From Candidatus Zixiibacteriota bacterium (GTDB lineage: Bacteria > Zixibacteria > MSB-5A5 > GN15 > FEB-12), in NCBI GenBank assembly GCA_034439475.1, contig JAWXAN010000058.1:1-34353 (forward strand): a stretch of 34,353 nucleotides of DNA. Direction: 5' to 3'. Below the pieces are notes generated by a model. The model saw only the letters and a program-made list of their open reading frames with translations, did not search any database and had not been told where the DNA came from. Of this stretch, positions 11,129 through 14,112 are shown piece after piece. The first letter of the stretch is position 1. Each line of letters begins with the position of its first letter. The position numbers and the translations under genes are program-made.

Positions 11129-12040
11129 CTAAGCCAATTTTGAGATAAAGCCGCCGGCATCATTCAACCGCTTAGAGGCTTCGGTGTTGTCACAGTTAAG
11201 CTTGTGCATCACAATGGCAATTTTCACCGAACCATCCGCGCTTTCTAAAAGCGATTCAGCCTCATTAAGTTGCACACTCAGGGTTTCCATCAGAATTTTT
11301 CTTGAGCGGGCGGCGAGTTTTTCAGATTTTGACTGAAGATCAACCATCATATTTCCGTAAGTCTTGCCGAGCAGGATCATGGCCGTTGTGGAGATCGTAT
11401 TGAGCGCCATCTTCTGCGCGGTCCCAGATTTCATTCGTGTCGAACCAGTGATGACTTCCGGGCCGACCGGAAGTTCAATGAGCACTGAAGGAGTAATGGG
11501 AAGATTCTGCGCTGCGTTGCAAATAATAAAGGCCGTCTGACAGCCGAGCTGTATTGCATGGCGGAGCCCGGCAAGGGTATAGGGGGTTCTGCGCGATGCT
11601 GCAATGCCGATGACCATATCATTTCTTGTGAGCCTTCGCTCTGCGAACTGGCCGATTATGGCATGCTCATCGTCTTCAACACCTTCCAAGGAAAGAATCA
11701 TGGTCGAGTACCCGCCTGCGATAAGGCCGGTCACCTGCTCAGGCCTGGTCCCGAACGTTGGCGGACACTCGGCGGCATCAAGAACACCGAGACGTCCCGA
11801 TGTGCCAGCGCCGATATAAAAAACTCGGTCTCCCCTGCGAAGGGTCTCGGCGAATAGTTCCGCCGCACGGGCGATCTGCTTGAGAGCGGCTTCGACCACA
11901 CCCGCCACAGTTTTGTCTTCGGCATTAATTTTTTTTGTAATTTCCAACGCAGTAAGCCGGTCTATGTCGGCCGTATTGGGATTGGGGCGTTCAGTGCCAA
12001 GCGAGCCCAGTTGCTCAATGATATCTTTATAATCTGTCAC
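11129..12040 (-). CDS. murQ: N-acetylmuramic acid 6-phosphate etherase
   Basis: This 303-residue protein is homologous to MurQ along its whole length. Key segments are TERPNPNTADIDRL, the SIS-domain sugar-phosphate site FYIGAGTSGRLGVLDAAECP (the Glu of AECP matches the catalytic residue of E. coli MurQ), and TGSTRMKSGTAQKMALNTIS. MurQ cleaves the lactyl ether of MurNAc-6-phosphate to give GlcNAc-6-phosphate and D-lactate in cell-wall recycling. The start is GTG at 12040, with no clear Shine-Dalgarno. No MurNAc transporter, AnmK or NagZ is adjacent, so the rest of the pathway lies elsewhere. It follows the lipoprotein gene on the same strand after 95 bases and converges with the GT39 gene, with no obvious terminator between them. 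Confidence 0.93.
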   Translation of the reverse strand: MTDYKDIIEQLGSLGTERPNPNTADIDRLTALEITKKINAEDKTVAGVVEAALKQIARAAELFAETLRRGDRVFYIGAGTSGRLGVLDAAECPPTFGTRPEQVTGLIAGGYSTMILSLEGVEDDEHAIIGQFAERRLTRNDMVIGIAASRRTPYTLAGLRHAIQLGCQTAFIICNAAQNLPITPSVLIELPVGPEVITGSTRMKSGTAQKMALNTISTTAMILLGKTYGNMMVDLQSKSEKLAARSRKILMETLSVQLNEAESLLESADGSVKIAIVMHKLNCDNTEASKRLNDAGGFISKLA

Positions 12041-12135: not shown

Positions 12136-12945
12136 TTACGGCTGAGTTGCCTGACGAATTGAGTCTCTGAACGAAACGACTACCGAGCCAAAATGACCGG
12201 ACAATTCACGTTCATCTATGTTATCCGAAAGCTGGCTGGGCAGTGGGGCTGGCAGAAGAAATTCTGTCATTGCGCTGTCCGGGCTGCCGCTGATAGCATA
12301 GACATAGATATAATACCAACCAGTGTCGAGGTTTACCCCATCAGTCTGATAGAATGCATCCCTGATTATAAATTCGGCTGTGGACTGCGAAGTTACATAG
12401 TGGCTAAAGCCTTCTCTCTGATACACCCTGTTTCTTCTCACAGTCGCCAGAACATACGTCTCAGCATTTGCCGAAGCCGTCCAATTAACAGAAACCGGAT
12501 CGTTGCCGTTTGAAATTCGGTTGACGGGGGCTACCTGTGTGATTGCGAAGGGACCCGGTACAGCCTGATTGATCGACACAGAAAGCCCATTACCGTTCTG
12601 GATACTCAGGGCACGGGTTTGCGATAGTAACGGATTTGAGGAGCCAAGGCCGAACCTGAAGAGCGAATCCTGGGGGAGGCCGAGCGTGTCAAAGCGGACT
12701 GTATCTGAACCAAATCGAATCGTTCCGGTACGGGTAGCCGAGCTATCGAAACGAAGGTCTGCAATAATATTGGAGGTATCCCGGTTCAGATCAATAACGA
12801 GCGCCCCGTTTAGGTTGTAATCGGCACGCAAAGGGCGGTTTATTGAACCAGCTGAATCACAGCTTTGTAGGAGACCGACGACTGCCAAGGAGAAGCAGGC
12901 GCAGATAACAAGTAATTTTGTGGGCGAAAAGGTTCTGTTTTTCAT
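12136..12945 (-). CDS. Hypothetical lipoprotein with fibronectin-III-like region
   Basis: This 269-residue protein has a good lipoprotein signal: basic residues, a hydrophobic core, then VVGLLQSC with the lipobox Cys near residue 29. AGAGAGAT precedes ATG 12945. Residues about 35-130 are Asp/Asn-rich beta sequence. Residues about 140-235 (ITQVAPVNRISNGNDPVSV, then SANAETYVLATV and DTGWYYIYVYAIS) look like a fibronectin type III-type beta sandwich, which is an impression from the pattern, not a verified match. No enzyme motif is visible. The protein is probably anchored in the envelope and exposed to the periplasm. It may be transcribed with murQ. Confidence 0.7.
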   Translation of the reverse strand: MKNRTFSPTKLLVICACFSLAVVGLLQSCDSAGSINRPLRADYNLNGALVIDLNRDTSNIIADLRFDSSATRTGTIRFGSDTVRFDTLGLPQDSLFRFGLGSSNPLLSQTRALSIQNGNGLSVSINQAVPGPFAITQVAPVNRISNGNDPVSVNWTASANAETYVLATVRRNRVYQREGFSHYVTSQSTAEFIIRDAFYQTDGVNLDTGWYYIYVYAISGSPDSAMTEFLLPAPLPSQLSDNIDERELSGHFGSVVVSFRDSIRQATQP

Positions 12946-13342
12946 ATCTCTCTACAGTATCGGCAGTATTGGTTGACTCTTTCACATTTTTTTTTAGGCC
13001 CACTGCATCCAAGCAACCCACTTATTCATTTATACTTATAAGTTATGCGGATTTAGCTGAATTTCCTAACGTATCTGTAATTATGATTACGCCCAGGAAA
13101 CAACCGCAGCAATTAAACAAATCGACAACTGGCACGTCTCTACCCTTGAAAAGAGAAATCGCAAGGACTGATTACTCCTCCGTTGGTCCTGACAGGCGAT
13201 ACGTTTGCATGATACACCAGAGAAGATACTTTGATTCTTCTCAAGATAAGTAAATATGATGGCGTCAGGCCTGCCCTATGAGTTTCACCTACACCCTTGA
13301 CTGTCAACACAACTGGCGTCATCATAAAAAATATACTGCTTT

Positions 13343-13470
13343 GACAGAGGTCTCTGTTCCTCTGAGCGAAAGCGACCGAGCTTTGGCGGATGGCATTTCA
13401 ATCTCGACGCTCACCTGTCCCGCCAGATAAATCCTATGCCTGTCCCTCCCCAAACGGCGTAGGATTTTTT
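13343..13470 (+). ncRNA. Candidate structured RNA: three-way junction plus terminator
   Basis: A TATACT box (13332-13337) precedes a segment that can fold into nested helices. P1 pairs GACAG (13343-13347) with CTGTC (13415-13419). A small arm AGG/CCT (13348-13350 and 13359-13361) can extend to CAGAGG/CCTCTG. P3 pairs TGAGCG (13363-13368) with CGCTCA (13408-13413), and CGAG (13377-13380) with CTCG (13403-13406). TGGCGG (13384-13389) can instead pair with CCGCCA (13420-13425), which would compete with P1. A strong terminator ends the unit. The downstream peroxiredoxin gene has its own promoter after this terminator, so a free small RNA and a leader riboswitch are both possible. It matches no class that I know. 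Confidence 0.4.
13430..13470 (+). terminator. Rho-independent terminator of the candidate RNA
   Basis: AATCCTATGCC (13430-13440) pairs with GGCGTAGGATT (13456-13466), 11 pairs including one wobble. The stem runs into six Ts (13465-13470). The 15-base loop contains CCCTCCCC, which resembles an anti-Shine-Dalgarno sequence. It lies upstream of a gene rather than downstream of one, which is what suggests an independent transcript. Confidence 0.75.
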
Positions 13471-13497
13471 ATTGAAATTTGGTCAAAATATCTCCCC

Positions 13498-13548: not shown

Positions 13549-14112
13549 ATGACCGAACACAATCCAAATCAACTGCCCGATAATTTTCCTATTCCCGAAG
13601 ACGACGGCGCTGCGGATCACCTCCAAGGCAAGGGCATGCCTTCTATTTTGCTCAGTTCCACTGCTGGCCAAGCAGTCAATATTGCCGAGATTTCCAAGAC
13701 GCTCACTGTTTTCTTTTTTTATCCTCGTACAGGCGTCCCCGGCGTGGAGCCGACGGTCGGATGGGATTTGATTCCTGGAGCGCGGGGATGCACCCCTCAA
13801 AGCTGTGGTTTTCGAGATGCATATCAGGATTTTAGTGAACTGCAAGCCCAGGTCTTTGGTGTAAGCGCCCAACCGACATCGTATCAAAAAGAATTCGCCG
13901 ACCGAAGTAAGCTTCCCTTTGAACTGCTGAGCGACAATGACCTTGAACTTACCGACTCGCTTGAATTGCCGACATTTTACGCAGGAGGTGCAAGGCTTAT
14001 CAGTCGCCTGTCGCTTGTTGTGAAAAACGGCATCATAGAGAAAGTCTTTTATCCGGTTTTTCCACCCGATAAAAACGCTGTGGATGTTCTGGAGTATCTT
14101 AAATCAAGATAG
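13549..14112 (+). CDS. Peroxiredoxin (AhpC/TSA-redoxin family)
   Basis: This 187-residue thioredoxin-fold peroxidase carries FFFYPRTGVPG and, after a short insertion relative to Bcp-type proteins (EPTVGWDLIPGA), RGCTPQSCGFRDAY. The Cys of GCTPQSC is the predicted peroxidatic residue, with a second Cys four residues later. The C-terminal KNGIIEKVFYPVFPPDKNA is typical of this subfamily, which occurs widely in proteobacteria and their relatives. The family reduces hydrogen peroxide and organic peroxides with thioredoxin-like donors. There is no export signal, so it is cytosolic. The gene stands alone behind its own promoter and next to the structured RNA described above. It converges with nth. 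Confidence 0.88.
   Translation: MTEHNPNQLPDNFPIPEDDGAADHLQGKGMPSILLSSTAGQAVNIAEISKTLTVFFFYPRTGVPGVEPTVGWDLIPGARGCTPQSCGFRDAYQDFSELQAQVFGVSAQPTSYQKEFADRSKLPFELLSDNDLELTDSLELPTFYAGGARLISRLSLVVKNGIIEKVFYPVFPPDKNAVDVLEYLKSR

What the first reader, a model, noticed from the sequence alone, without database searches (positions are those of the whole stretch)
13343..13470. Candidate orphan structured RNA with competing folds and a strong terminator
Seen: nested complementary segments form a three-way junction, an alternative pairing (TGGCGG with CCGCCA) would disrupt it, and an intrinsic terminator with a CCUCC-containing loop follows. A TATACT box precedes it and no ORF spans it. Inference: this is either a small RNA or a riboswitch/attenuator-type leader. 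It lies directly upstream of a peroxiredoxin gene that also has its own later promoter. I cannot match it to a known class.
Basis: partly seen in the sequence, partly recalled or inferred. Interest (0 to 1): 0.6.

Follow-up and report, generated by a model that had tools for sequence, protein, structure and literature searches.

The report
Conserved C-rich-loop small RNA gene family
The window holds a small regulatory RNA gene, independent of the neighbouring peroxiredoxin gene, that belongs to a previously uncatalogued RNA family found in 44 of 54 related genomes and ends in a nearly invariant C-rich loop suited to blocking ribosome-binding sites.

Summary
The element is real, but it is not a peroxiredoxin leader and the proposed three-way junction is not supported. 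It is a free-standing small RNA gene (about 13343-13471, +). Covariance models started from it find it in 44 of 54 genomes of the same taxonomic family (25 of 30 genera), with up to three tandem copies. Both conserved helices covary: 14 of 17 pairs change on both sides, 65 cells against 17.6 in shuffles. The terminator loop (CCUCCCC) is kept in 55 of 56 copies and is predicted unpaired in all 55. No Rfam family matches. The neighbourhood (murQ-lipoprotein or ECF sigma operon upstream, often convergent asnS downstream) shows an independent gene; the peroxiredoxin is a local insertion. Many copies carry an ECF-type promoter (GGAAAC-N15/16-TTGT) and lie beside an ECF-sigma/anti-sigma/MMPL/LolA-like/DUF1302 operon; the window copy instead has a TATACT box. 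Hfq is absent from all 54 genomes. Most likely it is a trans-acting, Hfq-independent RNA whose C-rich loop pairs with G-rich ribosome-binding sites, often as the noncoding arm of an ECF stress response, like ErsA and FoxI/FoxJ. Targets and expression are untested.

The parts
13343..13471 (+). predicted small RNA gene (about 129 nt in this genome; the conserved core is 13378-13471)
   Evidence: covariance model R1 matches 13343-13476; R2/R3 core 13378-13476 found in 44 of 54 family genomes
13332..13337 (+). TATACT -10-like box; no convincing -35 hexamer; no ECF-type GGAAAC box in this copy
   Evidence: sequence; one search finds no GAAAC/GGAAC in 13201-13384
13345..13364 (+). 5' hairpin CAGAGG/CCUCUG, lineage-specific (not conserved)
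   Evidence: fold; not kept in G030, 4 of 6 pairs in G023
13382..13427 (+). conserved hairpin, helix 13382-13389 with 13420-13427 (GGCGG/CCGCC core)
   Evidence: all 7 consensus pairs have changes on both sides across 36 sequences, 91% of cells paired
13414..13424 (+). second C-rich motif CCTGTCCCGCC, a repeat of the loop motif at 13439-13449; not evidently conserved
   Evidence: direct repeat D1
13429..13471 (+). intrinsic terminator: stem 13429-13440 with 13456-13467, T-run 13465-13470
   Evidence: searches (I2; pair probability near 1 except the outermost pair), 7 of 10 consensus pairs with changes on both sides
13444..13451 (+). CCCTCCCC in the terminator loop: near-invariant presumed target-pairing site
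   Evidence: CCTCCCC in 55 of 56 copies; mean unpaired probability 0.998 in 55 copies
12136..12945 (-). divergent upstream lipoprotein-like gene (cluster c3), syntenic in relatives
   Evidence: no Pfam match for this protein
11129..12040 (-). murQ-like SIS-domain gene (cluster c7), syntenic in relatives
13549..14112 (+). peroxiredoxin (Redoxin/AhpC-TSA), a local insertion, not part of the element
   Evidence: its ribosome-binding site pairs poorly with the loop, -3.1 kcal/mol

Best explanation
It is a trans-acting small regulatory RNA gene of a new, lineage-wide family. SHOWN by comparison: an independent gene with one conserved covarying hairpin followed by a terminator whose loop carries a near-invariant C-rich stretch (consensus CCCCUCCCC); no Hfq gene found; in many copies an ECF-type promoter-like box. 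INFERRED: an extracytoplasmic-function sigma factor (often the one encoded divergently next door) switches the RNA on under envelope-type stress, and the exposed C-rich loop pairs with G-rich Shine-Dalgarno regions of target mRNAs and blocks translation without Hfq; outer-membrane or transport mRNAs are the likeliest targets. In the window's own genome the same payload appears to be transcribed from a different, TATACT-type promoter.
For: Homologues in 44 of 54 family genomes, E down to 4.5e-24. Covariation: 65 cells against 17.6 +/- 3.9 shuffled and at most 15 in slid controls. CCTCCCC loop in 55 of 56 copies while the stems change, unpaired in all 55. Independent gene: upstream gene divergent in most loci, downstream gene convergent in 25 of 39, three tandem copies in G009 each with its own GGAAC box. 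ECF-type bipartite promoter in 25 of 35 copies against 1.8 shuffled, 0 on the other strand, at most 1 of 20 upstream of neighbouring genes. ECF sigma (PF04542/PF08281), zf-HC2 anti-sigma-like, MMPL, LolA_like and DUF1302-like proteins in the adjacent operon. No Hfq in 54 genomes with working controls. Precedents: FoxI/FoxJ (PMC11005410), ErsA (PMC7565897), sX13 (PMC3771888), LhrC (PMC4132741), RepG (PMC8295292).
Against: No transcript data. The promoter pattern was tuned on the discovery set; in 15 further copies only 3 carry it, and the window copy lacks it. The adjacent ECF operon itself does not carry the same promoter (1 chance match in 16), and G000 and several other genomes with the RNA lack that ECF orthologue. 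The best target candidate (the DUF1302-like outer-membrane protein) has a strongly G-rich ribosome-binding site in only 15 of 35 genomes and was picked post hoc.
Confidence: 0.72

Rival explanations
1. Riboswitch or attenuator leader of the peroxiredoxin (or of whatever gene follows): the terminator forms or not depending on a ligand.
For: In the window the peroxiredoxin starts 78 nt after the T-run on the same strand; in 13 of 39 loci the next downstream gene is codirectional.
Against: 25 of 39 loci have a convergent downstream gene, often asnS; the codirectional genes are of several unrelated kinds; the family lacks orthologues of this peroxiredoxin at the locus. No conserved anti-terminator: the proposed competing helices are not conserved.
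Confidence: 0.04
2. Small RNA as described, but the C-rich loop binds a protein (a titration sponge) rather than mRNAs.
For: A single very conserved loop sequence with a variable body fits a protein-binding site as well; no target is proven.
Against: No poly-C-binding regulator was identified here; studied RNAs with the same kind of loop act by pairing with G-rich mRNA sites (PMC8295292, PMC3771888, PMC4132741).
Confidence: 0.12
3. Small RNA with C-rich loop, but its ordinary control is by sigma-70-type or LuxR-type regulators, and the ECF-like box is coincidental or bound by another factor.
For: The window copy has TATACT; seven copies sit beside PAS-LuxR genes with TTGAC/TATnTT-like boxes; the ECF operon lacks the box; only 3 of 15 newly found copies carry it.
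Against: The box is strongly enriched in the discovery set with a narrow spacing, and the nearest regulator gene is an ECF sigma factor in about 16 to 20 genomes.
Confidence: 0.15
4. Chance fold plus an ordinary terminator, without function.
For: Single-sequence folding is only moderately better than shuffles.
Against: Conservation, covariation, near-invariant loop and synteny.
Confidence: 0.02

Closest known systems
ErsA / Pseudomon-1 RNA (RF01719), Pseudomonas
   Same: 5' hairpin region plus a terminator whose Rfam consensus loop holds CCCUCCCC; expression under an ECF sigma factor (sigma22/AlgU) and envelope stress, negative regulation of a porin mRNA (PMC7565897, PMC5819304)
   Different: Only 18.8 bits for the window copy and 28.1 bits for the best other copy, against a gathering score of 50; different bacterial lineage; host genomes here have no Hfq; probably convergent
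FoxI / FoxJ, Fusobacterium nucleatum
   Same: ECF (sigma E)-dependent RNAs with a C-stretch seed (predicted in a hairpin loop in FoxJ) in a bacterium without Hfq or ProQ (PMC11005410)
   Different: Unrelated lineage; no sequence comparison made here
LhrC, Listeria
   Same: Multicopy, UCCC motifs including the terminator loop, binds the ribosome-binding region without Hfq, induced by cell envelope stress (PMC4132741)
   Different: Controlled by LisRK, not an ECF sigma factor; three redundant motifs rather than one near-invariant loop
RepG, Helicobacter pylori, and sX13, Xanthomonas
   Same: C/U-rich (terminator) loop pairs with G-rich mRNA sites; sX13 is Hfq-independent (PMC8295292, PMC3771888)
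   Different: No relation of sequence or regulation is known
CcsR RNAs / cuckoo family, alphaproteobacteria
   Same: Tandem small RNAs under stress sigma factors (PMC10253847); C-rich loops (from memory)
   Different: Co-transcribed with a DUF1127 gene and processed by RNase E; here each tandem copy in G009 has its own promoter-like box

Membership tests
ErsA / Pseudomon-1 (RF01719) | score above the Rfam gathering threshold (50 bits) | tested here: not met
   18.8 bits for the window, 28.1 bits for L163
any of 4227 Rfam families | match at the gathering score | tested here: not met
   0 matches in the window; no match in 20 member loci reached a gathering score
trans-acting C-rich-loop small RNAs (functional kind) | independent transcription unit with own terminator | tested here: met
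   context of 39 loci, tandem copies; by inference from sequence, no RNA data
trans-acting C-rich-loop small RNAs (functional kind) | exposed conserved C-rich seed | tested here: met
   CCTCCCC in 55 of 56 copies, predicted unpaired
trans-acting C-rich-loop small RNAs (functional kind) | G-rich mRNA targets regulated by pairing | tested here: inconclusive
   DUF1302-like mRNA: 15 of 35 genomes with strong pairing, chosen post hoc
ECF-sigma-dependent small RNAs | ECF-type promoter | tested here: inconclusive
   25 of 35 discovery copies, 3 of 15 further copies, window copy not
ECF-sigma-dependent small RNAs | transcription depends on the ECF sigma factor | not testable with these tools
   needs an experiment
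Hfq-dependent small RNAs | Hfq present in the genome | tested here: not met
   PF17209 in 0 of 54 genomes; the search rings in 5 of 14 controls
riboswitch / attenuator leaders | conserved downstream gene on the same strand | tested here: not met
   25 of 39 loci convergent; codirectional genes differ

The most novel reading that the evidence does not exclude
A further separate lineage, beside Proteobacteria and Fusobacteria, in which an ECF envelope-stress sigma factor has its own noncoding arm, here without Hfq, using one fixed anti-Shine-Dalgarno-like loop that paralogues have put under other regulators (PAS-LuxR), so that one payload serves several stress inputs.
Probability: 0.4. Interest if true: 0.72.

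Novelty: new member of a known kind. Interest (0 to 1): 0.52.

Why it matters
It is an uncatalogued small RNA family that can be recognised from sequence across a whole family of bacteria without Hfq, known here mostly from fragmented assemblies. It gives a concrete, testable case for C-rich-loop regulation and for the repeated coupling of ECF sigma factors with small RNAs outside the well-studied phyla, and a covariance model with which to annotate it.

Tried and rejected
Peroxiredoxin leader: tested by searching the family for the peroxiredoxin and by context; rejected. Three-way junction: tested by energy and by conservation; rejected. Rfam classes: no hit. A DNA-level search (221 bases) found no homologue in 146 relatives; covariance models were needed. 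Weak first-round hits L104 and L107 lie inside coding genes and were dropped; hits outside the family (G096, G121, G131, G060) look mostly like ordinary terminators, while G057 (L341) has a UUUCCCUCCCCC loop and remains open. The ECF operon's own promoter does not carry the box. Target test on the DUF1302-like outer-membrane gene: nominally enriched (binomial p 5e-7 against the 10% level of 385 genes) but chosen after the fact, with related sequences, and weak in genus g4, which has the RNA; kept only as a candidate. The window's own genes show no convincing conserved target; the peroxiredoxin is not one by this measure. The organism's name was not determined; the phylum has a single class in the held set and the gene content recalls Zixibacteria, which is a guess from memory.

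Full report
OBSERVATION. The stretch 13343-13470 folds with z = -2.29 against shuffles. Its minimum-energy structure has two 5' hairpins (13345-13364, 13369-13384), a hairpin closed by GGCGG/CCGCC, and a strong intrinsic terminator 13429-13467 with a 15-nt loop UGUCCCUCCCCAAAC and a T-run. Rfam has no match; the nearest is ErsA/Pseudomon-1 at 18.8 bits, E 0.29, gathering score 50.

HOMOLOGUES. The DNA itself finds no relative in 146 genomes. A covariance model from the single sequence finds one full-length relative in another genus of the same family (G023, E 2.5e-11), at the same place: between the lipoprotein-like gene and, there, asnS. A two-sequence model of the 99-nt core then finds the element in 33 genomes of the family, and a 36-sequence model in 44 of 54, 25 of 30 genera (new sequences read). 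The other ten have no convincing match. In the own genome it is single-copy (next candidate E 0.08). Some genomes have two or three copies, in G009, G015 and G033 in tandem.

STRUCTURE. On 36 sequences, 14 of 17 consensus pairs change on both sides; 65 such cells against 17.6 +/- 3.9 in shuffles and at most 15 when partners are slid. The loop of the terminator stays nearly constant while its stem changes: CCTCCCC in 55 of 56 copies, predicted unpaired in all 55. The two 5' hairpins of the window copy are not conserved.

CONTEXT. In 38 fetched loci plus the window the upstream gene is divergent in most: either the lipoprotein-like gene with murQ behind it, or an ECF sigma factor followed by a zf-HC2 anti-sigma-like protein, an MMPL transporter, a LolA-like protein and a DUF1302-like outer-membrane protein. 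The downstream gene is convergent in 25 of 39, asnS in 14. About seven copies lie beside a PAS-LuxR gene instead. The peroxiredoxin next to the window copy has no orthologue at this locus in the family (only partial matches of 29-48% identity), while closer relatives (55-58%) sit in distant phyla, so it looks laterally acquired. The element is therefore a gene of its own.

PROMOTERS. Word counts in the 65 bases before the core show GAAAC in 18 of 31 copies against 3.6 expected. A bipartite pattern (GGAAAC-like, 13-19 nt, TTGT-like) is in 25 of 35 copies against 1.8 in shuffles and 0 on the other strand, and in at most 1 of 20 neighbouring gene starts; but this pattern was written after seeing those sequences, and only 3 of 15 further copies have it. 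GGAAC-type -35 boxes are typical of ECF sigma factors (established knowledge). The ECF operon itself lacks the box, and the window copy lacks it too, having TATACT. So ECF control is likely for many copies, not proven, and probably not true of the window copy.

MECHANISM. Hfq is absent from all 54 genomes. C-rich motifs in other bacteria pair with ribosome-binding regions or G-rich sites without Hfq (LhrC, PMC4132741; sX13, PMC3771888) or with G-repeats (RepG, PMC8295292). ECF-controlled RNAs with C-rich pairing regions occur in the Hfq-less Fusobacterium (PMC11005410), and ErsA, whose Rfam terminator consensus contains CCCUCCCC, depends on the ECF sigma factor sigma22 (PMC7565897). The simplest reading is the same action here. 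Among gene clusters in the loci the DUF1302-like outer-membrane gene had the best loop/ribosome-site pairing (mean -12.7 kcal/mol against -5.5 for 385 genes); on 35 genomes the mean was -10.1 with 15 strong sites, so it is only a candidate. The peroxiredoxin is not a target by this measure (-3.1).

VERDICT. A real, new small RNA family; a known kind of mechanism by inference; no leader function. Expression and targets remain to be shown.

Noticed in passing
window 13255-13268 and 13313-13326; 13298-13308: A 14-nt inverted repeat (TATGATGGCGTCAG / CTGGCGTCATCATA) and a palindrome TTGACTGTCAA just upstream of the TATACT box; they may be regulator sites of the window copy.
   Followed up: no
window 13549-14112: Peroxiredoxin with 55-58% identity to proteins of distant phyla but no orthologue at this locus in its own taxonomic family: probable lateral acquisition.
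   Followed up: partly
L203, L215, L217, L218, L230, L231, L234: Paralogues of the small RNA next to PAS-LuxR genes, several with TTGAC/TATnTT-like boxes and ACGTA-containing repeats upstream: the same RNA under a different regulator.
   Followed up: partly
L199, L201, L220, L222, L223 and others: Conserved operon: ECF sigma, zf-HC2 anti-sigma-like, MMPL, LolA-like, DUF1302-like outer-membrane protein; an envelope-transport-like set whose role is open.
   Followed up: partly
L341:1019-1105 (-): Possible distant member in a sister family of the same order, terminator loop UUUCCCUCCCCC.
   Followed up: no
G005, G006, G008, G010, G022, G025, G027, G032, G052, G053: Ten family genomes without a convincing match; for G005, G008, G032 and G053 the flank of the ECF gene was searched too and gave none.
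   Followed up: partly
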